Shown here in pieces: positions 33,965 through 44,696 of a stretch of DNA of 44,696 nucleotides. Made by a program: the position numbers and the translations under genes. The stretch is from the NCBI GenBank assembly GCA_027488975.1, contig JAIYAQ010000003.1, positions 1 through 44,696 on the forward strand, read 5' to 3'. The notes below the pieces were generated by a model. It worked only from the letters and a program-made list of their open reading frames with translations. It made no database searches and had not been told where the DNA came from. Positions within the stretch are counted from its first letter, which is position 1; every line of letters begins with the position of its first letter. The stretch is from Cyanobium sp. E1_MAG_00006. Its GTDB lineage: Bacteria > Cyanobacteriota > Cyanobacteriia > PCC-6307 > Cyanobiaceae.

Positions 33965-35683
33965 TCAGAACCTGAACTGAGCGGCAAGAAGGCCACCGAA
34001 CACGTTCGCACCGGTGTTGATCGGCGCGGCAGCGGTACCGCCGTTGGCACCAGCGCTGCTGGGATTGCTCAAGTAGAAGAGCATCGGGGTGATCGAGATG
34101 TTGTCGGACACCTGGAACCTGTACCACCATTCCCAGGCGTAGTTGCCATCGAACGGGGTCACACCGTTGCGGGTGGAGGTCACGAAGGACGGCTGACCGA
34201 CGGCCATACCGGCGGAGTTGCCCTTGGCGAAGACATCCTTCCACTGCAGGCCCACAGTCCAGGACTGGGTTGCAGAGATGTTGGTGGCAGCAAGCGCACT
34301 GCTGATGCCTGAGTTGGCGGTGGTGTTCGACGTGCGCACAACCGGAGCAGCCTGGTTGCCGTAGGCGTAGGCGCTGTAACCCCAGCCACCGCTGATGGAA
34401 GGAACAATGGTGCCGTTGTTCTTGGGCTGCCAGGCGAGACCAACAGCAAAGTTGTTGTTGTAGTTGTCGCTGGTCCAGCCGGTAGCGGTGTTGCCGCAGC
34501 TCTCAGCAGCCACAGCAGCCTGGGTACCACGACGGTTCACAGGCTGACCACACTGGCCGTAGCGCCAGCCGAAGGTGGCCTTCCACTGCTGAGCCTGATA
34601 ACCCAGCTGGGTGGTCCAGCTGCCGCCACTGCCGTTGGTGAATACACCACCGTTGGAGGGGTTGGAGCTATCCGAGTTGGGAGCGGTATAGCTGGTGGAA
34701 ACAGCGAAGAACGGCTTGCCCTTCTTCACGTTCTGCTTCCACATCAGGCCGGCGAAGCCACCGGTAGCCTTGTTGTAGGTGCCGGGAGCGCCGTGCAGGG
34801 TGAAGAAATCAAGACCCGCGAAGTCGCCGTAATAGAAGGGGAGGATCGCCAGGAACTCAGTGTTACGAGCGCGGGGGCCAACCATCGCCGTGAACTCCTT
34901 ACCAACCGGGAAGCGGTAGTAAAGACGATCAAGGTTGAAAACGTTATTGCCACCGGTCGGCGAGAAGGCCCTGTCCAGTGCCATCAGGCTGTAGGGCTGA
35001 CCGTTAAAGGCGCTGTTCGCGAAGTTACCCGAACGCAGGCGGGTGTACAACTGATCCTTGCCGGTGAAGCTGGTGATCAGATTCAGGCGCAGATCGTAGT
35101 TGAACGTTGTAGCGCCAAACGTGCTTGCGTTGCGCTGGGTGCCGTTCACAAGGTTGTTGTTCTGGCCGCCATACACCGGAGCACCGAGTGTCCAGTAGGT
35201 GTCACCCTGGAGCTTGGTGGTGGTGGAGAACTGGGTGGCTTCCAGCTTGCCCACCTTCTTCTCGAGACCGTCAACACGGCCCTTGATCACAGCGAGCTCC
35301 TTGGCGAAGTCCTGCTGCAAGCGCTGGATTTCGTCGGTGATCTCGGTGACGCGATCCAGGCAGGCGTTCAGCAGAGCGGCCGCTTCATAGCGGGTCATCG
35401 CCTGCTGGCCCTTGTAGGTGCCGTTGGGATAGCCGGCCACACAGCCGTACTTTTCCACCAGGTTGCTGAGTGCCTGGTAGGCCCAATCGGTGGGCTTGAC
35501 GTCAGACAACTGGGTGACGGAGGTCACCTGGTTCTGATCCGCCCAGACGCGGAAGTTGTGCAGATCGCTCTGCTGGATGTAGCCGTTCATGCCAGCGGAT
35601 GCCAGATCCGAGGCTTGGGCGCCAACCGGAGCCATAAGGCCCAGGGCAGCAGGCGCCAGAAGAAGTTTCTGGAACAGTTTCAT
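33965..35683 (-). CDS. Iron-uptake-type porin with SLH domain (porin 1)
   Basis: A 572-residue outer-membrane porin of the cyanobacterial OprB/Som type. A signal peptide (MKLFQKLLLAPAALGL...) is followed by an SLH domain (about 58-105, with SDVKPTDWAYQAL and CVAGYPNGTYKG) that anchors to peptidoglycan-linked polymer, then a coiled coil (about 110-150), and a beta-barrel of about 400 residues. The last residue is Phe, as expected for outer-membrane barrels. Homologues carry inorganic ions, and some have been called iron-uptake porins. An AGG-containing ribosome site precedes ATG 35683. It has its own terminator. The barrel differs from that of porin 2, although the first 20 codons are nearly identical. 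Confidence 0.9.
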   Translation of the reverse strand: MKLFQKLLLAPAALGLMAPVGAQASDLASAGMNGYIQQSDLHNFRVWADQNQVTSVTQLSDVKPTDWAYQALSNLVEKYGCVAGYPNGTYKGQQAMTRYEAAALLNACLDRVTEITDEIQRLQQDFAKELAVIKGRVDGLEKKVGKLEATQFSTTTKLQGDTYWTLGAPVYGGQNNNLVNGTQRNASTFGATTFNYDLRLNLITSFTGKDQLYTRLRSGNFANSAFNGQPYSLMALDRAFSPTGGNNVFNLDRLYYRFPVGKEFTAMVGPRARNTEFLAILPFYYGDFAGLDFFTLHGAPGTYNKATGGFAGLMWKQNVKKGKPFFAVSTSYTAPNSDSSNPSNGGVFTNGSGGSWTTQLGYQAQQWKATFGWRYGQCGQPVNRRGTQAAVAAESCGNTATGWTSDNYNNNFAVGLAWQPKNNGTIVPSISGGWGYSAYAYGNQAAPVVRTSNTTANSGISSALAATNISATQSWTVGLQWKDVFAKGNSAGMAVGQPSFVTSTRNGVTPFDGNYAWEWWYRFQVSDNISITPMLFYLSNPSSAGANGGTAAAPINTGANVFGGLLAAQFRF

Positions 35684-35698
35684 GGTCCTCACACCAAA
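35628..35698 (-). repeat. 5'-end repeat, copy 1
   Basis: These 71 bases cover the signal-peptide codons, start and leader of porin 1. They match 37526-37596 at 69 of 71 positions. Confidence 0.85.
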
Positions 35699-35707
35699 TC
35701 GAGGAAG

Positions 35708-35721
35708 CCCCTAAATAGGGG
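35708..35721 (-). promoter_or_regulatory. Inverted repeat and possible -10 of porin 1
   Basis: CCCCTA and TAGGGG form perfect 6-base arms around two bases, 25 bases upstream of the start codon. On the minus strand the centre reads TATTTA, a plausible -10. The arms could be an operator overlapping the promoter, or a leader hairpin. No good -35 is seen. Confidence 0.4.
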
Positions 35722-35841
35722 TCGGCCCAGCTTAACGATCGCTGGCGCCACGCAAATCCGCCGCAAGCACGCAGCAGTGTAATGCAGAGCACATCAAACA
35801 GCCGGGCATTGCAAACACCAACCAGCGCCAACTGAGCCCAT

Positions 35842-35870
35842 AAAAAAAGGTCGCGACCGAAGCCGCGACC
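35842..35870 (-). terminator. Terminator of porin 2
   Basis: On the minus strand a 7-bp stem (35864-35870 with 35849-35855) with an 8-base loop is followed by seven T. It closes the porin 2 transcript upstream of porin 1. Confidence 0.88.
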
Positions 35871-35899
35871 AGAAACGAATGGAGGTTATGTGAGGAGAA

Positions 35900-35944
35900 C
35901 GATCGGGAACTGGCGATGTGTGAGGAAGGTGCCAGTTCCGATCG
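35900..35944 (-). other. Long 3'-UTR hairpin of porin 2
   Basis: Arms at 35900-35914 and 35931-35944 are complementary over 14 bp with one bulged base, with a 16-base loop. It lies 17 bases after the porin 2 stop and upstream of the terminator. It has no T-run and so is not itself a terminator. Confidence 0.7.
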
Positions 35945-35961
35945 AGTGATCTGATTGAGGA

Positions 35962-37581
35962 TCAGAACTTGAAGGTGGTCTTGATGATGCCACCGAAGTT
36001 GGTGAGTGCCGCACCGTTGCTGCCGCTCACTTGGTTGGCGAGGAAGCTGCCCTGACCCAGCGGGTTGCTGAGGTAGTAGATGGCCGGGGTCACGCTGATG
36101 TTGTCGGTGACCTGGAACTTGTACCACCACTCCCAGGCGTAGTTGCCGTCCTGAGGGCTGAAGTTGTTGTTGCCGTTGCCGGACACGAAGGTGGGTTGGC
36201 CCACAGCCATGCCGAGAGCATTGCCCTTGATGAAGGCATCAGCCCACTGCAGGCCTACATACCAGCTCTGACTCTGAACGCCATCAAAGTTGAAGGCGGT
36301 GTTGGCTTCGCTGTAGCCGTTGATGCCCCAGCCGGCACTGATCGATGGAACCCAGCCGCTGGTGCTGGGCTGCCAGTAGGCGCTCAGGCCAAAGGAGTTG
36401 ACGGTGTCGGCAAACGCACCGAGACCTGCCAGAACAGCGAAGGGGGTACCGGAGGCCGGGCCCACGCCATCGCTGTAGTTGTAGGCAACAGCAGCACCCC
36501 AGTTAGAGGCGGCGTAGCCGACCTGGAGGGTACCGGTTTGCTGGGCTCCGTTAGTACCGATACCGCCGAGGCCAGGAGCGCCCACATCACCGTTGGCAGA
36601 CACGTAGTTGGCGCTGACGCTCCAGCCGTTCTTCTGATACCAGATACCGGCACCAGCACCCAGGTTCAGATTATAGGTGCCAGGAGCACCGCCGTAAGTG
36701 AAGATGTCGAGAACGGTGTCAGCGGGGTACACGCTGGGCCACATGGCCAGCATGTCGTCCTGACGGACGCGGGCACCGAAGGTGGCTTTAAAGCCGTCAC
36801 CGATGGGGAATTGGTAGAAGAGGCGGTTGATGGCGACCACGTCACCGCAATCAACGCCGGTGCCGCATCCTTCCTGGAAGGCGACTTCCAGAGCATTCAG
36901 ACCCAGGGTTGCACCGTTGGGGCCAACAACAGGGCCGCCACCGAAGGCGGAATCAGCGAAGTTGCCTGCGCGCAGAGTGGTGCGAAGCAGGTCCTTGCCG
37001 GTGAAGCTGGTGTCGAAGTTCAGGCGAACGTCGTAGTTGAAGCTGGTGCCGCCTTCGAGGGCGATGGCCTCATCTCTGAGGCCGGAGTTGTTACCGCCAA
37101 AGGAGTTAGCGCCCAGCACGAAGGTGGCAATACCCTTCAGCTTGGTGGTGGTGGAGAACTGGGTGGCTTCCAGCTCACCCACTTTGGCTTCGAGGCCATC
37201 CACGCGGCCCTTGAGCACGGCGAGTTCCTTCTCGAACTCCTTCATCAGGCGCTTGAGCTCGTCGGTCACTTCGGTGATCCGGTCGAGACAGGCGTTCAGC
37301 AGGGCCGCCGCTTCAAAGCGGGTCATGGCCTGGCCGCCCTTGTAGGTGCCGTTGGGGTAGCCGGCAACGCAGCCGTAGCGCTCGATCAGGTTGCTCAGAG
37401 CCTGATAGGCCCAGTCGGTCGGCTTGACGTCGGAGAACTGAGTGATCGAGGTCACCTGCTCCTCGGAGCCGGTGGTGTACTGGCGGACGCCAGCAACGTT
37501 GAGATCAGCGGCGGAAGCAGCCACAGGAGCCATCAGGCCCAGGGCAGCAGGCGCCAGAAGAAGCTTCTGGAACAGTTTCAT
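35962..37581 (-). CDS. Iron-uptake-type porin with SLH domain (porin 2)
   Basis: A 539-residue paralogue of porin 1 with the same plan: signal peptide starting MKLFQKLLLAPAALGL, SLH domain (SDVKPTDWAYQALSNLIERYG), coiled coil, and a C-terminal beta-barrel ending in Phe. The barrel is clearly different, with Gly/Asn/Ser-rich loops and EGCGTGVDCGDV, which could be disulfide-bonded. The ATG at 37581 is preceded by the same GTGTGAGGACC leader as porin 1. Open frame upstream to 37719 is not a signal peptide and is rejected. Both porins are monocistronic. Confidence 0.9.
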   Translation of the reverse strand: MKLFQKLLLAPAALGLMAPVAASAADLNVAGVRQYTTGSEEQVTSITQFSDVKPTDWAYQALSNLIERYGCVAGYPNGTYKGGQAMTRFEAAALLNACLDRITEVTDELKRLMKEFEKELAVLKGRVDGLEAKVGELEATQFSTTTKLKGIATFVLGANSFGGNNSGLRDEAIALEGGTSFNYDVRLNFDTSFTGKDLLRTTLRAGNFADSAFGGGPVVGPNGATLGLNALEVAFQEGCGTGVDCGDVVAINRLFYQFPIGDGFKATFGARVRQDDMLAMWPSVYPADTVLDIFTYGGAPGTYNLNLGAGAGIWYQKNGWSVSANYVSANGDVGAPGLGGIGTNGAQQTGTLQVGYAASNWGAAVAYNYSDGVGPASGTPFAVLAGLGAFADTVNSFGLSAYWQPSTSGWVPSISAGWGINGYSEANTAFNFDGVQSQSWYVGLQWADAFIKGNALGMAVGQPTFVSGNGNNNFSPQDGNYAWEWWYKFQVTDNISVTPAIYYLSNPLGQGSFLANQVSGSNGAALTNFGGIIKTTFKF

Positions 37582-37596
37582 GGTCCTCACACCAAA
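37526..37596 (-). repeat. 5'-end repeat, copy 2
   Basis: The porin 2 copy of the 71-base start region; only two mismatches to 35628-35698. Confidence 0.85.
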
Positions 37597-37716
37597 AGAG
37601 GAAGTGGGCACAGAGGCCCTGACGAGAGTGTTGCAGCCACGGCCGGTAGCAGCGAGGAAACGTGTGCCAGAACACACAACGGCCTCCCCCGGCTCAACCA
37701 GGCACACCCCACCGCG

Positions 37717-37756
37717 CAAAACGATGCCCCCGCCCAGGCCAGGCCTGAACGGGGGC
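37717..37756 (-). terminator. Terminator-like hairpin after the 17-codon ORF
   Basis: On the minus strand a 7-bp GC stem (37750-37756 with 37726-37732) with an inner CAGGC/GCCTG stem is followed by ATCGTTTT. The T-run is weak. It lies between the 17-codon ORF and porin 2 and could end the short upstream transcript or act as an attenuator. Confidence 0.5.
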
Positions 37757-38044: not shown

Positions 38045-39652
38045 ATGAGGCGCCTGCTCCTGCCACCACTCCTGCTCGCTGGCCTGCTGCTGCCGCTGCT
38101 GCTGACAGCCGCACCGCAGAGCCATCTGGCCCACGACGCGGGCTACTACGCCCTGCAGGCGCGCTGGATAGAACAGAGCAACCAGTGGTTGGCGCCGCTG
38201 TGGTTCGGCCAGCCGCTGTTCGACCGCTGCATCGGCGCCCAGTGGCTGATGGCCCTGGCCCTAAGGCTCTCCGGCGGGGCCGCCTGGGCCGAAACAGCGC
38301 CGGCGCTGCTGGCGGCGTTCGCGAGCGTGCTGCTGTGTGGCTGGCTGGCCCAGCAGCTGCTGCCCGGCAGCGCTACCGAGCGGCGGCGGCTGGGCTGGCT
38401 GAGCGCAGCCGTGCTGGCGCTGACGCCGCTATGGCTGAACTATGCCCATCTGGCCACCCAGGACATTCTGCTGCTGGCGGTGGAACTGGCGGGGCTGGCC
38501 GCTCTCGTGGCCTGGCGACCAGGGGGCGGCGATCACTGGGCGCTGCTGGCCGGGCTGACACCCGGACTCGCCTTTCTGATCAAGGGGTTCATGGTGGCCC
38601 TGCCCCTGCTGGCCATCGCGCCCTACCTGCTTGTGGAGCGCCGCCGGCTGCTGCGGCACTGGCAGCTCTGGCTGGGGCTGGGGCTCGGCTGGCTGCCGGT
38701 GCTGCTCTGGCTGAGCGCCAGCGTGCACAGCTACGGCCTGCCCGTGGTGGCAGGCCTGTGGACCAAGCTCCTGTTCCTCTCCAGTTCCGACAGCTTCGCC
38801 CCAGGCCCTCTCTATTACTTCTGGAATATTCCGGCCAACACTGCGCCCTGGATCCTGCCGGCGCTGGCGGGCTGGCCGCTGCTGTGGCGCGCGCCGCTGG
38901 AGCGGAGCCAGCGCCTGCTGCTCCTGCTCTATCCGCTGCTGTTGCTGCTGTTGCTCAGTGCCTTCCGCACCAAGACGCCCTACTACGGCCTGCAGCTGAG
39001 CCCCTTCATCGCCATGGCGGCAGCCGTGGGCCTGCAGAGCTGGAGCCAGGTTCCCGGCGGCTGGCTTCGGCGCTTCGATGGGCTGATCGCCAGCATCGGG
39101 GCCTTGCTGGTGCTCGGGGCTGGCCTGCTGCTGTGGCCAGCCGGAACGCTGCGCGGGGCACTGGCGGCAGCGGAAGGCCTGCCCAGCTGGGTGGCCCTGG
39201 CCGCCGCAGCGGCCGGGCTTGGCCTGAGCTGGCTGGCGGTGCCCTGGCAGGCCACACCACAGCGGAGGCTGGCCGCCGTGCTGCTGGGCCCCTGGCTGGC
39301 GCTGGTGCTTCTCCACCAGGCGGGGCTGTTCAGCGACCGCACCCCTGCACTGCGCCGTGCCCTGGAGGGGTCGGCCGCCCAGGCGGAGTTGCGGCAGGGG
39401 CCGATCGCAGCAGCAGCCGGCCAGCCGCTCAGCGGCAACGACCATGCCCTGCTGATTTCACTGGCACTGGCCACACCGCAGACTCCATCTCAGTTGCTGC
39501 AACCCTCGGCAGTGGGCGAAGGGCAGACGGTCTGGATCCGGCGTAGCGAGCTGGGCGATCCGCAGGCCTGGCGGGTGGCCGTGGAGGCACCAGCCCTGCA
39601 GGGCTGGCTGCTGGCGCAACGGCGCCACACCACGCAAACACCGATCCGATGA
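38045..39652 (+). CDS. GT39 (ArnT/PMT-like) membrane glycosyltransferase
   Basis: A 535-residue polytopic protein of the glycosyltransferase 39 family, which transfers sugars from polyprenyl-phosphate donors to lipids or proteins on the outer face of the inner membrane. The N-terminal helix is followed by the first periplasmic loop with HDAGYYALQARW, where D31 is the expected catalytic acid. Later come the ATQDILLLAVELAGL segment, KGFMVALPLL and KTPYYGLQLSPFIAMAAA, the usual GT39 landmarks, and more than ten hydrophobic segments. A C-terminal extracytoplasmic part of about 100 residues ends the protein. It overlaps the next gene by ATGA and heads the four-gene envelope cassette. Confidence 0.87.
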   Translation: MRRLLLPPLLLAGLLLPLLLTAAPQSHLAHDAGYYALQARWIEQSNQWLAPLWFGQPLFDRCIGAQWLMALALRLSGGAAWAETAPALLAAFASVLLCGWLAQQLLPGSATERRRLGWLSAAVLALTPLWLNYAHLATQDILLLAVELAGLAALVAWRPGGGDHWALLAGLTPGLAFLIKGFMVALPLLAIAPYLLVERRRLLRHWQLWLGLGLGWLPVLLWLSASVHSYGLPVVAGLWTKLLFLSSSDSFAPGPLYYFWNIPANTAPWILPALAGWPLLWRAPLERSQRLLLLLYPLLLLLLLSAFRTKTPYYGLQLSPFIAMAAAVGLQSWSQVPGGWLRRFDGLIASIGALLVLGAGLLLWPAGTLRGALAAAEGLPSWVALAAAAAGLGLSWLAVPWQATPQRRLAAVLLGPWLALVLLHQAGLFSDRTPALRRALEGSAAQAELRQGPIAAAAGQPLSGNDHALLISLALATPQTPSQLLQPSAVGEGQTVWIRRSELGDPQAWRVAVEAPALQGWLLAQRRHTTQTPIR

Positions 39653-42033
39653 GCGCTCCCCTCTCCGTCCGCCTGCGCCGTGATGCCCTCGGGCTTGGAG
39701 GGTTGTGGCTGCTGGGTGTCCTTCTGGATCTGATCTGGGTGCAACAGCACGCACTGCCTCCCGCCTGGGACCAGGGCGATCACCTCAGCCGCGCCCTGGG
39801 TTTCTGGCAGGTTCTGCAGCACAGCGAGCCCTTCAACCCCACCTGGTGGCAGGCGCTCTGGGCCCAGGCCCCCAGCTACCGAGGTCCGCTCACCTACCTG
39901 ATCACCGCACCGCTGTTCTCGCTGCTGGGGCCGGGCTACGGCACGGCGATCCTGAGCAACAGCCTGTACCAGGCGCTGCTGCTCGTGAGCCTCTATGGCC
40001 AGGGATGGCTTCTGGGGCGGCGCTCGGCAGGCCTCTGGGCAGCCTTCCTGGCCAGCGTGGCACCGGCGCTGCTGAACCAGCGCACCGACTATCTGATTGA
40101 TTTCAGCCTCACGGCCGTGCTCACGGCCAGCTGGCTGCTGCTCAGCCTCCGCCATCTCGCCGCCGCCCGCTGGCCATGGCGCAGCAGCGCCCTGGCGGGG
40201 TTGGGGCTGGGGGCTCTGCTGCTCACCAGGCCGACAGGGCTACTGCTGCTCTGGCTGCCGTTGCTGTGGCTGGCGCTGCGGGCGATCAGCCAGCTGCTGC
40301 GGGGGCGCTGGAGCCTGGCCGGCCAGGGACTGCTGGCCGGCGGGCTGGCCTGGCTCGTGGCCGGAGGCTGGTTCAGCCAGAACTGGCTCACGATCATCAG
40401 CACCGTGAACAATGCCCGCCGCTGGGGGGTGCTCTACCAGGAGGGGCTGGAGCCCAACACGCTGGACGGCTGGCTCTACTACCCGCGGCTGCTGCTGGCG
40501 ATGGTGGGCGCCTGGCTGGTGGGCGTGGTGCTGGTGGGCTGGCTGCTGCGCTGCTGGCGCCAGCGGCGCTGGCCCAGCCTGCCCGCCGACGGCCCCGCCC
40601 GCTGGCGGCTGGCCTGGTGGCTGAGCTTCCCCCTCGGCGGGATGCTGCTGGCCTCGTTGATGAGCACCAAGGATTTCCGGTTTGTGCTGCCGCTGCTGCC
40701 GCAGCTGCTGATGGCCCTGGGGCTGCTGATCGCTACGGCAGGGCGCTGGCTTCAGGCGGTTGTGGTGCTGCTAGGGCTGAGCGGGCTGCTGGCCTGCCAG
40801 TTCAGCATCGGGCCCAACCTCACCGGCTTTCCTGCCCATCCGCCCCAGCGCGGCGAGCACTGGCCCGTGGCGGAGATCATTGGTGTGATCCGCAGCCAGA
40901 GCCCCAACCAGCTCTCCACGCTGGCGGTGCTGCCGGACAGCGAATCCCTCAATGCCTTCAACCTGGAAGCCGAAGGCCGCCGCCAGCACTTCCGCGTGGC
41001 GGCCCGACAGACCGTGGCCCCACTGGAACACCTCGATGAGGATCTGGCAGGGTTCGACTGGTTCCTGCTCAAGGGCGGCGACCAAGGGGTGATGAGCGAT
41101 GAGCGCCAGGCCTGGCTGAGCTCCCTGGTGCGCCAATCGCCAGCCTTCGTGACCGCCGGCAGCTGGCGGCTGCCCGATGGCAGCGAGGCGGTCCTCTACC
41201 GCCGGCGTGCACTGAGCTTGGAGGTGGTCGCCGCCGCCTGCCCAACAGCGAGCCACGTGACGCTCGATCTCTGGCCAGAAAGTGGCGTCAGCCGGCTGAA
41301 CGGGCCGGCCGATCAGCTCGCCGGCAGCCTGCTGCTGCTTGAAGGGCACGACCGGGCTCTCGGCCAGGGCATGCTGCGCCTTGAGAACCAACCAGCGAAT
41401 CGCACCGCAGCTGGCTGCATGGCGATCACGGAACGGTTGAGCCCTGCCTTGCGTGCAGACGACGCAGCGGCGGCCGTCAACGCGGCGCGGTTGCTGCTGC
41501 CAACGGGCCAGGAGTTGCCCCTGCAGGTCACGGTGCATCAGCCTGCGGCTGACGCGATTCCATCCAAGGAACCGTTGCTGGCCAACCGTCATCAGCAGCT
41601 GCTGGAGCTGGGCCAGCTGCTGCGCCGCGGCGAGCTGGATGAACTGTTCGCCCGGGTGGGCCGGATCAATCAGCACGATCCGGAACAGCTCTACCTCGCC
41701 AATGGCGAGACGATCCTCCAGGCCCGGCTGAAGCGTGATCCGCAGAATCTGGAGCTGCTCTACCCCCTGGCCCTGGCCCAGGCGCTGCAGCGCAAGGCCG
41801 ATGCCGCCGCCCACACCCTGAGCCGCATCACCCGGCTCGATCCCGGCAATGCCAACGCCCATCTCGGACTGGGCTTCGTGCAGCTCTACCGCTTCAAGCC
41901 CTGGGCGGCCCAACCGGCGCTGGACCAAGCTGCACAGCTGAATCCCGCCGACACCACCCTGCGCACCCTGCGCGCCGTGGCAGCGGCCCTTCGGCTCGAC
42001 CTCATCGAGGCCCACTCCTTGATCCAGCAATGA
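39649..42033 (+). CDS. GT39-like membrane protein with C-terminal TPR
   Basis: A 794-residue protein. The first 390 or so residues are a GT39-like membrane domain with the N-terminal acidic loop WDQGDHLSRALGF (D41, D44), RTDYLIDFSL and TRPTGLLLLWLPL, plus STKDFRFVLPLLPQ. A soluble region of about 240 residues follows. The C-terminal 150 or so residues hold TPR helices (LYPLALAQALQRKADAAAHTL, ANAHLGLGFVQLYRFKPWAAQPAL - regions about 700-770). TPRs on a polyprenyl-sugar transferase could recruit acceptors or partners, which is inference. The ATG overlaps the previous stop and its own stop overlaps the next ATG (ATGA at 42030-42033). Confidence 0.85.
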   Translation: MSAPLSVRLRRDALGLGGLWLLGVLLDLIWVQQHALPPAWDQGDHLSRALGFWQVLQHSEPFNPTWWQALWAQAPSYRGPLTYLITAPLFSLLGPGYGTAILSNSLYQALLLVSLYGQGWLLGRRSAGLWAAFLASVAPALLNQRTDYLIDFSLTAVLTASWLLLSLRHLAAARWPWRSSALAGLGLGALLLTRPTGLLLLWLPLLWLALRAISQLLRGRWSLAGQGLLAGGLAWLVAGGWFSQNWLTIISTVNNARRWGVLYQEGLEPNTLDGWLYYPRLLLAMVGAWLVGVVLVGWLLRCWRQRRWPSLPADGPARWRLAWWLSFPLGGMLLASLMSTKDFRFVLPLLPQLLMALGLLIATAGRWLQAVVVLLGLSGLLACQFSIGPNLTGFPAHPPQRGEHWPVAEIIGVIRSQSPNQLSTLAVLPDSESLNAFNLEAEGRRQHFRVAARQTVAPLEHLDEDLAGFDWFLLKGGDQGVMSDERQAWLSSLVRQSPAFVTAGSWRLPDGSEAVLYRRRALSLEVVAAACPTASHVTLDLWPESGVSRLNGPADQLAGSLLLLEGHDRALGQGMLRLENQPANRTAAGCMAITERLSPALRADDAAAAVNAARLLLPTGQELPLQVTVHQPAADAIPSKEPLLANRHQQLLELGQLLRRGELDELFARVGRINQHDPEQLYLANGETILQARLKRDPQNLELLYPLALAQALQRKADAAAHTLSRITRLDPGNANAHLGLGFVQLYRFKPWAAQPALDQAAQLNPADTTLRTLRAVAAALRLDLIEAHSLIQQ

Positions 42034-43424
42034 CCAATCCTGCCGCCCAGCTCCACTTCCATCAGCGCAACCGGGCCTATTACGAGGATCTGGCTCGACT
42101 GCACCACCTGCTGGTGGGGCAGGGGCTGCGGGTGCTGGAGATCGGCTGCGGAATGGGCGATCTGCTGGCGAGTGTGCGGCCGGCCCATGGTGTTGGCGTG
42201 GAACTGGATCCAGCTCTGACCCGGGCGGCCCAGGAGCGGCATCCGCAGCTGCGCATCCTCTGCGCCGACGCCGAGACAATCACCCCGGAATCGATCGGCG
42301 AACAGGAGCCCTTCGATGTGATCCTGCTGCCGAACACCCTCAACACGCTGCAGGACGTGCAAGGGGTGCTCGAGCGGCTGGAGGCCTTCTGCCATCCGCG
42401 CACCCGGCTGGTGGTGAGTTTCCACAACTGGCTCTGGCAGCCATTGCTCAAGGCCGCCGAGCTGATCGGCCAGCGCCAGCCGCAACCACCGGAGAGCTGG
42501 CTGACGCCGCGCGATGTGGGCAACCTGCTGGATCTGGCGGGATGGGAAGTGCTCAAGAGCGGCCATCGCTGCCTCCTACCGCGCCGCATCCCCCTGCTCA
42601 CCCCACTCGCCAACCGCTGGCTGAGCCAGCTGCCCGTGCTGGAGCAGCTGGGGCTCACCCACTGGCTGGTGGCGCGGCCCGCCCGCCAGCAGCCCCAGCA
42701 GCCGAGCGTGAGCGTGGTGATCCCAGCCCGCAACGAAGCCGGCAACATCGCCCCGGCGATCGAACGGCTGCCCCAGCTGGGCCGCTCCACCGAGGTGATC
42801 TTCGTGGAGGGCCACTCCACAGACGACACCTGGCAGCGGATCGAGCAGGTGTGCGACAGCTACAGCGGCCCCTTCCGGCTGAAGCGCTTCCGTCAGAGCG
42901 GCAAAGGCAAGGCCGATGCGGTCTGGCTGGGCTTTGAGCAGGCCGAAGGGGAGATCCTGATGATCCTCGATGCCGATCTCACCGTGCGCCCGGAAGACCT
43001 GCCCCGGTTCGTGCAGGCCATGGCCGAAGGCCGCGGTGAATTCGTGAACGGTTGCCGGCTGGTTTACCCGCGCAGCCATGCCGCCATGCCGCCGCTGAAC
43101 ACCGCCGCCAACCGGTTCTTCGCCGCCGTGTTCTCCTGGCTGCTGCGCCAGCGCCTCAAGGACACCCTCTGCGGCACCAAGGTGATCTGGACGCAGGATT
43201 ACGCGCGCCTCAAGGCCGGCCGCAGTTACTTCGGCAACTTCGATCCCTTCGGTGATTTCGATCTGCTGTTCGGCGCCAGCAAGCTGAACCTCAAGATCGT
43301 GGAGGTGCCGGTGCGTTATCAGGAACGCAGCTACGGCAGCTCCAACATCGCCCACGTGAAGGAGGGCTTGATCCTGGCGCGGATGTGCGCCTATGCAGCC
43401 CGCAAGCTGCGCTTCGCACCCTGA
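42030..43424 (+). CDS. Methyltransferase-GT2 fusion protein
   Basis: A 464-residue fusion. Residues about 1-190 are a class I SAM methyltransferase with RVLEIGCGMGDLLA (34-47) and GVELD (56-60). Residues about 226-464 are a GT2 domain resembling dolichol/polyprenyl-phosphate sugar synthases: VSVVIPARNEAGN (227-239), VEGHSTDDTW, and the metal-binding DADLT (314-318), then TLCGTKVIWTQDYARL and FGDFDLLFGASKL. The GT2 domain probably makes a polyprenyl-phosphate sugar for the GT39 enzymes, and the methyltransferase may modify the sugar or lipid. That division of labour is inference. It is coupled to the GT39-TPR gene by a 4-base overlap. Confidence 0.88.
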   Translation: MTNPAAQLHFHQRNRAYYEDLARLHHLLVGQGLRVLEIGCGMGDLLASVRPAHGVGVELDPALTRAAQERHPQLRILCADAETITPESIGEQEPFDVILLPNTLNTLQDVQGVLERLEAFCHPRTRLVVSFHNWLWQPLLKAAELIGQRQPQPPESWLTPRDVGNLLDLAGWEVLKSGHRCLLPRRIPLLTPLANRWLSQLPVLEQLGLTHWLVARPARQQPQQPSVSVVIPARNEAGNIAPAIERLPQLGRSTEVIFVEGHSTDDTWQRIEQVCDSYSGPFRLKRFRQSGKGKADAVWLGFEQAEGEILMILDADLTVRPEDLPRFVQAMAEGRGEFVNGCRLVYPRSHAAMPPLNTAANRFFAAVFSWLLRQRLKDTLCGTKVIWTQDYARLKAGRSYFGNFDPFGDFDLLFGASKLNLKIVEVPVRYQERSYGSSNIAHVKEGLILARMCAYAARKLRFAP

Positions 43425-43440
43425 GGCACCAGCCACGGCC

Positions 43441-44394
43441 ATGAGCAAGCGCTGGCTGATTCCCCTGGTGGCCGCCCTGGTGATCTACATGGGCCTGGGG
43501 CTGACCTTCGGCCTTCACGATTTCGGCAGCACCCTGCAGCGGCTGCCGCTCTGGTGGTGGTTGCTGGCACCGGCCGTGGCGCTGTGCAGCCACGGCCTGC
43601 TGTTCCAGCGCTGGCAGTCCTATCTGCGCCAGCTGGGCTTTCCCCTGCCGTGGCGGGCCAGCAGCAAGATCTACGCAGCCGGGCTGGCACTGATCGCCGC
43701 GCCCGGTCGCAGTGGCGAAGCGCTGCGGGGGTTGTGGCTGCAGCGGCGCCATGGCTTCCCGCTGCAGGTGGGGGTTGGCATCACCCTGGCGGAACGGCTG
43801 GCGGATCTGGCCAGCGCCCTGCTGGTGCTGAGCTGGGGGCTGGGGGAACGGGTGTGGGCCGCCGTGCTGGTGGGTCTGGCGGTGCTGGCCGCCGGCGCCT
43901 GGCTGCTCACCCATCCGCGCATGATCCGTCGGCTGGAGCACGGTCTGGAGCGACTGCCGCTGCACCCTCGCTGGCATGGACTGATCCGCCTGCTGCGCGA
44001 GGGCTTACTGGCCATGGGCCGGGTGCGCCAACTGATGAAGCCGCGGCCCCTGCTGATCGGCACCCTGCTGGCCTGCCTGTGCTGGCTGATCGAAGCTGGC
44101 GTGCTGCAGGGGCTCTACGCAGCACTCGGCACAACCCTGACCCTGAATCAGAGTGCCGTGATCCGCACCGCCACAGGGCTGGGAGGGGTTATCTCCCTGC
44201 TGCCGGCCGGGCTGGGCACCAGCGAAGCCACGGCGATTGGACTGGCCATGGCCTTCGGCGCCAGCCGCCCCAGCGCCCTCGCCGCCACATTGATGCTGCG
44301 TTTCTCCACCCTGGCAGTGCCCTGCCTGATCGGCGTGATCACACTGCTGCGGCAGAAGGATCTGAGCCGGGGCGGAGGGGGTCCAAAGGCTTGA
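43441..44394 (+). CDS. LPG synthase/flippase-like membrane protein
   Basis: A 317-residue membrane protein of the UPF0104/LPG_synthase_TM superfamily, with about 8 hydrophobic segments. Landmarks are the first-loop LALIAAPGRSGEALRGLWLQRRHGF, TLAERLADLASALLVLS and the C-terminal GLGGVISLLPAGLGTSEATAIGL. Proteins of this fold include the membrane part of MprF and archaeal/bacterial proteins tied to lipid-linked sugars. Here it lacks the MprF catalytic domain, so a flippase or accessory role is more likely. It begins 16 bases after the fusion gene. Its stop codon lies within the heptamer array. Confidence 0.83.
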   Translation: MSKRWLIPLVAALVIYMGLGLTFGLHDFGSTLQRLPLWWWLLAPAVALCSHGLLFQRWQSYLRQLGFPLPWRASSKIYAAGLALIAAPGRSGEALRGLWLQRRHGFPLQVGVGITLAERLADLASALLVLSWGLGERVWAAVLVGLAVLAAGAWLLTHPRMIRRLEHGLERLPLHPRWHGLIRLLREGLLAMGRVRQLMKPRPLLIGTLLACLCWLIEAGVLQGLYAALGTTLTLNQSAVIRTATGLGGVISLLPAGLGTSEATAIGLAMAFGASRPSALAATLMLRFSTLAVPCLIGVITLLRQKDLSRGGGGPKA

Positions 44395-44460
44395 TCCCTC
44401 ATCCTTGATCCCTCATCCCTAATCCCCATTCCGCATTCCTCGTTCCTCATTCGAGAGTCC
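44391..44460. repeat. Ten-unit degenerate heptamer array
   Basis: Seventy bases divide exactly into ten 7-base units, the first four alternating TTGATCC and CTCATCC, then diverging (CTAATCC, CCATTCC, GCATTCC, TCGTTCC, TCATTCG, AGAGTCC). The consensus is NNNWTCC. The array starts at the last codons of the upstream gene and includes its stop. It resembles the short tandemly repeated repetitive sequences known from other cyanobacteria. Confidence 0.8.
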
Positions 44461-44566: not shown

Positions 44567-44696
44567 TCAAAGAGCGTTGCCGCGGGGCAGAACCTCTTCA
44601 GGGAAGACGAAGTTTTCGTGCGGCTGGTCAGCCGGTGCCATCCAGGCACGCAGACCTTCATTCAGAAGGATGTTCTTCGTGTAGAAGGTTTCGAAC
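44567..44696 (-). CDS. psbD: Photosystem II D2 protein, C-terminal fragment
   Basis: The window ends inside this gene; only the last 42 codons are present. The residues [19 protein letters not shown] and the end [17 protein letters not shown] are characteristic of D2, the photosystem II reaction-centre subunit that with D1 binds P680, pheophytin and plastoquinone QA. In psbDC operons psbC overlaps or follows this end, but here a terminator follows at once. That marks it as the likely monocistronic second copy, often called psbD2. The copy number cannot be seen from this window. Confidence 0.93.

What the first reader, a model, noticed from the sequence alone, without database searches (positions are those of the whole stretch)
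38045..44394. Compact lipid-linked glycosylation cassette
Four plus-strand genes with 4-base overlaps or a 16-base gap encode a GT39 enzyme, a GT39-like/TPR protein, a methyltransferase-GT2 fusion and an LPG-synthase/flippase-like protein. GT2 enzymes of this type make polyprenyl-phosphate sugars, and GT39 enzymes use them. The set could therefore build, flip and transfer a methylated sugar onto an envelope lipid or protein. I know of no named pathway with exactly this composition.
Basis: partly seen in the sequence, partly recalled or inferred. Interest (0 to 1): 0.65.

Follow-up and report, generated by a model that had tools for sequence, protein, structure and literature searches.

The report
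Methylating three-component sugar-transfer operon
Four neighbouring cyanobacterial genes look like a compact machine that loads a sugar onto a membrane lipid, probably methylates it, carries it across the inner membrane and hands it to a cell-surface molecule; the general design is known, and the unusual part is the methyltransferase welded to the sugar-loading enzyme, a pairing found in many bacterial phyla.

Summary
The four genes are real and correctly placed. g1 (535 aa) is an ArnT-like GT-C transferase (PMT_2). g2 (794 aa) has no family hit over cut-off, but its predicted structure is an ArnT-fold GT-C enzyme (Z 26.8) with a C-terminal TPR module. g3 (464 aa) fuses a SAM methyltransferase to a GT2 domain of the DPMS/ArnC class. 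g4 (317 aa) is an LPG_synthase_TM "flippase-like" protein. Acidic catalytic positions, the GT2 DAD motif and the SAM motif are intact. The order g1-g2-g3-g4 recurs in Synechococcus/Cyanobium, with rearrangements in Prochlorococcus. It is patchy (fusion in 23 of 151 family genomes). None of 14 phylum loci outside the family has the full set; two have g1-g3, one g2-g3-g4. The fusion itself spans ten phyla, and 27 of 49 loci outside the family have a large polytopic protein directly beside it (background 35 of 319 genes). Best reading: a variant three-component glycosylation system (polyprenyl-P-sugar synthase, flippase, GT-C) with a methyltransferase built into the donor-making enzyme and two transferases. 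Donor sugar, methylated position, acceptor and the flippase role of g4 are not shown. New variant of a known kind.

The parts
38045..39652 (+). g1: ArnT-like GT-C glycosyltransferase, 535 aa (PMT_2)
   Evidence: Pfam PMT_2 41.6 bits over cut-off; profile of 15 cyanobacterial g1 rows finds ArnT 5ezm E 1.7e-15, profile positions 9-410; D31, D60, R61, D140 in 15 of 15 rows, facing Asp, Glu-Lys and Asp of ArnT in the printed alignment
39649..42033 (+). g2: GT-C fold membrane glycosyltransferase with an alpha/beta and beta region and a C-terminal TPR module, 794 aa
   Evidence: AlphaFold2 model pLDDT 85.8, pTM 0.84; ArnT 5f15 Z 26.8, 424 residues, rmsd 4.0, model 7-522, and TPR chains such as 8chy Z 15.7 on 646-794; D41, D147, D151, R194, K341-D342-x-R344 in 14 of 14 rows; no Pfam family over cut-off
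42030..43424 (+). g3: SAM-dependent methyltransferase (about 1-218) fused to a GT2 polyprenyl-phosphate-sugar-synthase-like domain (about 222-464); no membrane helix by hydropathy
   Evidence: Pfam; model pLDDT 89.3; GT2 part DPMS 5mlz Z 25.0, ArnC Z 24.1, GtrB Z 21.2; MT part 1vlm Z 21.9; D314 and D316 in 28 of 28 rows, SAM motif-I Gly39 and Gly43 in 27 of 27 MT-bearing rows; no hydrophobic segment over threshold
43441..44394 (+). g4: LPG_synthase_TM / flippase-like (TIGR00374) integral membrane protein, 317 aa

Best explanation
The operon is a variant three-component glycosylation system of the inner membrane. g3's GT2 domain transfers a sugar from a nucleotide sugar (GDP- or UDP-linked, identity unknown) to polyprenyl phosphate on the cytoplasmic face. 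g3's fused methyltransferase methylates that sugar, most simply on the nucleotide sugar or the freshly made lipid-linked sugar (inferred). g4, which lies next to g3 and may also anchor this helix-less enzyme, helps move the lipid-linked sugar to the periplasmic face (inferred). There g1 and g2, both GT-C enzymes, use it as donor to decorate an envelope acceptor; g2's TPR module may hold the acceptor (inferred). Shown by sequence or predicted fold: the four protein classes, intact catalytic positions, tight same-strand packing and recurrent order in the family genomes that carry it. Not shown: sugar, methylation, flipping, acceptor. The confidence given is for the three-component reading as a whole; I put the methylated-donor step at about 0.55 and g4 as flippase at about 0.5.
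For: GT2 domain nearest to Pol-P-sugar synthases (DPMS, ArnC, GtrB) by sequence and fold, ahead of the phosphoglycerate glycosyl synthases at Z about 18. g1 ArnT-like; g2 with an ArnT/STT3/ALG12/PglB-like fold, enzymes that use polyprenyl-linked donors (recalled). Conserved catalytic positions. In 23 of 23 family genomes with the full-length fusion a GT-C gene (g2 or g1) lies just upstream, and g4 follows in 20 of 23 within the 1.5 kb held. Complete order g1-g2-g3-g4 in 21 of 43 loci (19 after removing duplicates), several others cut by contig ends. Outside the family a large polytopic protein sits directly beside the fusion in 27 of 49 loci against 35 of 319 background genes; of 56 polytopic proteins within four genes of the fusion, 15 match PMT_2 at E 0.01 or better and 4 carry TPRs. 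The published logic of synthase + flippase + GT-C is described in passages of PMC11127046 and PMC7389260.
Against: No sugar-nucleotide gene lies in the operon, so the donor is unknown. LPG_synthase_TM proteins lie within five genes of the fusion in 11 of 49 loci outside the family (22%) against 14% of background genes, not a clear excess, so g4 as the dedicated flippase rests on picocyanobacterial synteny. In 11 of the 14 phylum loci outside the family no g1, g2 or g4 is seen beside g3 by profile, so the fusion can do without them. Two GT-C enzymes for one donor is more than a three-component system needs. Most of the 56 polytopic neighbours have no PMT_2 match and 2 are MFS transporters, so calling them GT-C is inference. 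The adjacency background comes from the same loci, and some of the 49 are near relatives (for example L071/L072, L077/L078), so they are not independent. The genome holds three more PMT_2 places and a second LPG_synthase_TM gene that could share or replace these roles.
Confidence: 0.72

Rival explanations
1. The cassette is a lipid A or LPS-core modification system of the Arn/Rgt type: g3 makes a polyprenyl-phosphate uronic acid or aminopentose and g1 puts it on lipid A.
For: g1 is ArnT-like and g3's GT2 domain ArnC-like; a review passage states that cyanobacterial lipid A lacks phosphate and carries galacturonic acid (PMC4390846, passages).
Against: Patchy: full-length fusion in 23 of 151 family genomes and 23 of 386 phylum genomes, absent from same-genus G064, G134 and G150, so it is unlikely to be the general lipid A galacturonylation enzyme. 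It would not explain the methyltransferase or g2. The ArnT equivalog model scores 26.9 against a cut-off of 567.
Confidence: 0.2
2. It is a protein O-glycosylation system: g2, a GT-C enzyme with TPRs like eukaryotic TMTC proteins, glycosylates secreted or outer-membrane proteins, perhaps the SLH-OprB porins encoded divergently from g1.
For: g2 combines a GT-C fold with TPRs; other phyla carry multi-membrane-segment, TPR-rich proteins near the fusion (L055 three genes away, L056 and L075 directly beside it); a porin lies divergent to g1 in 26 of 26 Synechococcus/Cyanobium-type loci with enough upstream DNA, window included, 4 of them duplicates.
Against: The psbD-side flank is conserved too, so porin adjacency may be plain synteny; 8 of 8 Prochlorococcus-clade loci have no porin in the DNA held; TPRs are promiscuous; no PMT match was found in L056 or L075 among the rows shown. 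The TMTC comparison rests on a search listing with abstract starts.
Confidence: 0.25
3. g4 is not a flippase but an anchor, scaffold or lipid-modifying enzyme relative; an unlinked transporter flips the donor.
For: g3 has no membrane helix of its own by hydropathy, unlike ArnC and DPMS (recalled); g4 scores far below the MprF and HpnL models' cut-offs; g4 linkage outside the family is not clearly above background; flippase activity is undemonstrated even for the published prototypes (PMC11127046 passage).
Against: TIGR00374 is named flippase-like and scores above its cut-off; g4 is next to g3 in 36 of 43 loci.
Confidence: 0.35
4. The methyltransferase half acts on something other than the donor sugar (for example the phosphate, or the end of an acceptor glycan), or has become a structural domain.
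For: No substrate evidence; structural neighbours of the MT part are a broad mix (1vlm, 2gs9, CmoM, TylM1); GT2 relatives in four low-GC family genomes lack the SAM-binding half, so the GT2 step can do without it.
Against: SAM motif glycines kept in 27 of 27 MT-bearing rows and the fusion kept in ten phyla point to an active enzyme coupled to the GT2 product.
Confidence: 0.35

Closest known systems
Three-component glycosylation systems (GtrA-GtrB-Gtr(type); CsbB-GtcA-YfhO; Citrobacter undP-Ribf system with GT136)
   Same: Polyprenyl-phosphate-sugar synthase (GtrB type; the Citrobacter one is of another type), membrane flippase candidate and GT-C transferase; periplasmic transfer logic (passages)
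   Different: Methyltransferase fused to the synthase; LPG_synthase_TM protein in place of GtrA/SMR/MATE proteins; two GT-C enzymes, one with TPRs; synthase without membrane helix by hydropathy; acceptor unknown
ArnC / ArnT (lipid A 4-amino-4-deoxy-L-arabinose)
   Same: g3 GT2 domain is ArnC-like by fold (Z 24.1); g1 (profile) and g2 (fold) are ArnT-like
   Different: Far below the ArnT equivalog cut-off, no Arn sugar genes in the operon, no SMR-type ArnE/F beside it, patchy
DPMS / AglJ-type dolichyl-phosphate sugar synthases
   Same: Best NCBIfam hit AglJ 93.5 bits; best PDB sequence match and best Z DPMS
   Different: Below the AglJ cut-off (325 bits); bacterial; fused MT
TMTC1-4 (eukaryotic GT-C + TPR O-mannosyltransferases)
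   Same: Domain plan of g2: GT-C membrane part then TPRs
   Different: No sequence match to them was seen here; bacterial, short TPR module; comparison is by architecture only (search listing with abstract starts)

Membership tests
Three-component glycosylation system | Cytoplasmic synthase of polyprenyl-phosphate sugar | tested here: inconclusive
   Fold and motif of the DPMS/ArnC/GtrB class present; activity cannot be tested here
Three-component glycosylation system | Polytopic GT-C transferase with the conserved acidic residue near the first external loop | tested here: met
   g1 D31 15 of 15, g2 D41 14 of 14; ArnT alignment and fold
Three-component glycosylation system | Linked membrane flippase of a recognised type (GtrA, SMR, MATE) | tested here: not met
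   g4 is LPG_synthase_TM/TIGR00374 instead; so filed as a variant that works like one, not as a standard member
Three-component glycosylation system | Sugar reaches a periplasmic acceptor through the lipid donor | not testable with these tools
   needs mutants and mass spectrometry
ArnT lipid A aminoarabinose transferase | Passes the equivalog cut-off | tested here: not met
   NF009784 26.9 bits against 567
GT39 (taken as Pfam PMT PF02366) | PMT PF02366 match | tested here: not met
   g1 and g2 show no PF02366 row at E 0.1; g1 matches PMT_2 PF13231
MprF bifunctional LPG synthase/flippase | Full MprF model over cut-off | tested here: not met
   33.3 bits against 600; only the TM-region model matches
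SAM-dependent class I methyltransferase | Glycine-rich SAM motif and Rossmann-type fold | tested here: met
   G39 and G43 in 27 of 27 MT-bearing rows; fold match 1vlm Z 21.9

The most novel reading that the evidence does not exclude
The MT-GT2 fusion is a widespread bacterial class of methylating polyprenyl-phosphate-sugar synthase: it makes an already O-methylated lipid-linked sugar, so that methylation is decided in the cytoplasm at the donor and the finished methyl sugar is flipped and transferred outside by partner GT-C enzymes. Methyl sugars on bacterial envelopes would then be added as ready-made units instead of by methylating finished glycans.
Probability: 0.4. Interest if true: 0.62.

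Novelty: new variant of a known kind. Interest (0 to 1): 0.45.

Why it matters
O-methyl sugars recur on bacterial surfaces and the point at which the methyl group enters is often unknown (recalled, not searched). A fused methyltransferase-synthase gives one clear, testable place for it. The fusion occurs in ten phyla by submitters' titles and in freshwater and oceanic picocyanobacteria, where patchy surface glycans could bear on phage and grazer recognition (that last link is speculation). It also offers LPG_synthase_TM proteins as candidate flippases for lipid-phosphate sugars.

Tried and rejected
g1, g2 and g4 single-sequence PDB searches gave none, TPR only and none; profiles helped for g1 only. 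Search for g2 in viral contigs: no relative confirmed. Paper searches aimed at this gene combination held no paper with the terms; others gave general or unrelated listings. So 'no paper found on this combination' rests on those searches of one open-licence library.

Porin as substrate: not made a main claim, since the whole region is syntenic. LPG_synthase_TM excess near the fusion outside the family: 11 of 49 against 14% of 319 background genes, not a clear excess. GDP-fucose as donor: GDP-fucose-synthase-like genes lie near the fusion in L120, L066 and, more weakly, L050, all below that model's cut-off of 500 bits (451, 466, 291), with GMD over cut-off in L120; too few, and too common a gene pair, to commit. 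G000 has a GMD over cut-off on another contig. Lipid A modification: kept as a rival, disfavoured by patchiness.

Sampling cautions: the 80 loci are the best 80 of 180 found, so the distant set is not random; most are metagenome bins and their phyla follow submitters' titles. In one search my simple gene caller missed g3 in nine cyanobacterial loci, which were then handled by tblastn. Of the 151 family genomes, 95 are at least 90% complete with at most 5% contamination, so some absences may be gaps. For one search I gave 56 of the 83 polytopic neighbours, mostly leaving out the shorter ones. Gene starts in relatives were chosen by script. Only 14 of the 386 phylum genomes' loci (those outside the family with a match) were read for neighbours.
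Full report
OBSERVATION. The window is contig C28 of a 2.70 Mb, 40-contig, nearly complete genome whose closest g3 rows are Synechococcus-type picocyanobacteria.

WHAT EACH GENE IS. g1 matches PMT_2 over cut-off. A profile of 15 cyanobacterial g1 proteins finds ArnT 5ezm at E 1.7e-15 over about 400 positions. D31, D60-R61 and D140 are invariant in 15 of 15 rows and face the Asp, Glu-Lys and Asp of ArnT in the printed alignment; that these are ArnT's catalytic or donor-binding residues is recalled. g2 has no Pfam family over cut-off, but its predicted structure (pLDDT 85.8) is a GT-C fold: ArnT 5f15 Z 26.8 over 424 residues, followed by OST/STT3, ALG12, Pmt4 and PglB chains; residues 646-794 are a TPR module at Z about 15.7. 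D41, D147, D151, R194 and K341-D342-x-R344 are kept in 14 of 14 rows. Two g2 relatives have PMT_2 rows below cut-off (L033 22.0 bits; L162 19.7 bits). g3 joins a class I methyltransferase to a GT2 domain. The model (pLDDT 89.3) puts the GT2 part with DPMS (Z 25.0), ArnC (24.1) and GtrB (21.2), ahead of phosphoglycerate glycosyl synthases at about 18. D314 and D316 of the DAD motif are kept in 28 of 28 rows and the SAM-motif glycines 39 and 43 in 27 of 27 MT-bearing rows. My hydropathy count finds no membrane helix in g3. g4 is LPG_synthase_TM/TIGR00374, over both cut-offs, and far below the MprF and HpnL cut-offs.

CONSERVATION OF THE SET. Of 151 genomes of the family examined, 23 carry the full-length fusion (over 700 bits); in the window's own genus 4 of 7 do. 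In 23 of 23 the DNA just upstream encodes g2 or g1; g4 follows in 20 of 23 within the 1.5 kb held, one of the three exceptions being at a contig end. In L007 a 599-residue frame lies between g3 and g4. Prochlorococcus-clade loci show g1-g3-g4, g1-g3-g4-g2 or g1-g3-g2. Across the phylum 23 of 386 genomes carry the fusion at E 1e-60 or better, 9 of them in the family. Of the other 14, one has g2-g3-g4, two have g1-g3, and eleven show none of g1, g2, g4 beside g3 by profile, L175 having only a weak g1 match (34 bits) three genes away. The Oscillatoriales locus L035 has a cut g1-like frame just upstream (107 bits). In a quick maximum-likelihood tree the rows of the cyanobacterial class form one supported group (SH-aLRT 99) and L162, with g2-g3-g4, is sister to the family rows. 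So the linkage g2-g3-g4 seems to predate the family, and the patchiness is better explained by loss than by recent transfer (inference). Two relatives without the cassette, G064 and G134, keep the psbD-side flank.

THE FUSION ELSEWHERE. Full-length relatives at 44-53% identity occur in Bacteroidota, Chloroflexota, Acidobacteriota, Nitrospirota, Pseudomonadota, Planctomycetota, Myxococcota, Thermodesulfobacteriota and Ignavibacteriota by submitters' titles. In the 49 loci outside the family (L035, L037-L084), 27 have a protein of at least 450 aa with at least eight hydrophobic segments directly beside the fusion; among 319 other genes of the same loci 35 do. Some of the 49 are close relatives, so they are not independent. 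Of 56 polytopic proteins within four genes of the fusion, 15 match PMT_2, 4 carry TPRs and 2 are MFS transporters. LPG_synthase_TM proteins lie within five genes in 11 of 49 (22%) against 14% of background genes, which is no clear excess. I therefore count a link to large membrane proteins, part of them GT-C, as general, and the g4 link as picocyanobacterial only.

MECHANISM. The composition fits the published three-component logic: a synthase makes a lipid-phosphate sugar, a flippase carries it over, a GT-C enzyme transfers it (passages of PMC11127046; PMC7389260). What is shown here is protein class, intact motifs and gene order. What is inferred is the sugar, its methylation, the role of g4 and the acceptor. 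The genome also holds three further PMT_2 places and a second LPG_synthase_TM gene, so the division of labour is not certain. A GT2 relative in four low-GC family genomes (G017, G095, G117, G136) lacks the SAM-binding half but keeps a weak trace of the C-terminal part of the methyltransferase (E 1.5e-4 to 2.6e-3 in six of six records, which are four genes, among 623 frames), so the methyltransferase may be dispensable for the sugar-loading step. That trace is modest evidence; in two of these genomes the g1 relative is next door, in the other two it is not, and a separate 311-residue frame about 8 kb away matches the SAM half at 24-25 bits in both larger stretches examined, so a methyltransferase in trans is not excluded.

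ACCEPTOR. Lipid A galacturonic acid is described for cyanobacteria (PMC4390846 passages), but a cassette found in 23 of 151 family genomes is unlikely to be the general enzyme for it. A porin divergent to g1, 62-398 bases between matched ends, is present in 26 of 26 Synechococcus/Cyanobium-type loci with enough upstream DNA (window included, 4 duplicates) and in none of 8 Prochlorococcus-clade ones; as both flanks are syntenic this is only a lead.

VERDICT. New variant of a known kind.

Noticed in passing
window 33965-37719 (-) and g1 start: Two SLH-OprB-type porin genes lie divergent to g1; a porin lies 62-398 bases (between matched ends) from g1 in 26 of 26 Synechococcus/Cyanobium-type loci with enough upstream DNA, window included, 4 of them duplicate records. 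The genome has 5 OprB matches in all.
   Followed up: partly
window 44570-44695 (-): The window's right end encodes 42 residues identical to the C-terminal part of L115:5107-6414, a photosynthetic reaction-centre protein (PF00124); the contig seems to break in a gene with more than one copy.
   Followed up: partly
window 44390-44450: A degenerate heptamer array (ATCCCTC-like, 8.3 copies from 44394) starts at the g4 stop codon.
   Followed up: no
L122:9733-10821 (-) and L136:9698-10468 (+): GT2 relatives without the SAM-binding half of the methyltransferase, each next to a g1 relative; a possible natural non-methylating version.
   Followed up: partly
L055:3569-5647, L056:1839-4139, L075:469-2493: Multi-membrane-segment proteins with long TPR arrays lie near (L055) or directly beside (L056, L075) the MT-GT2 fusion, recalling eukaryotic TMTC architecture.
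   Followed up: partly
L015, L016, L020 and similar, porin-g1 intergenic region: A short inverted repeat (GGCGCA-A-TGCGCC) and a conserved block precede g1 in Cyanobium-type loci.
   Followed up: no
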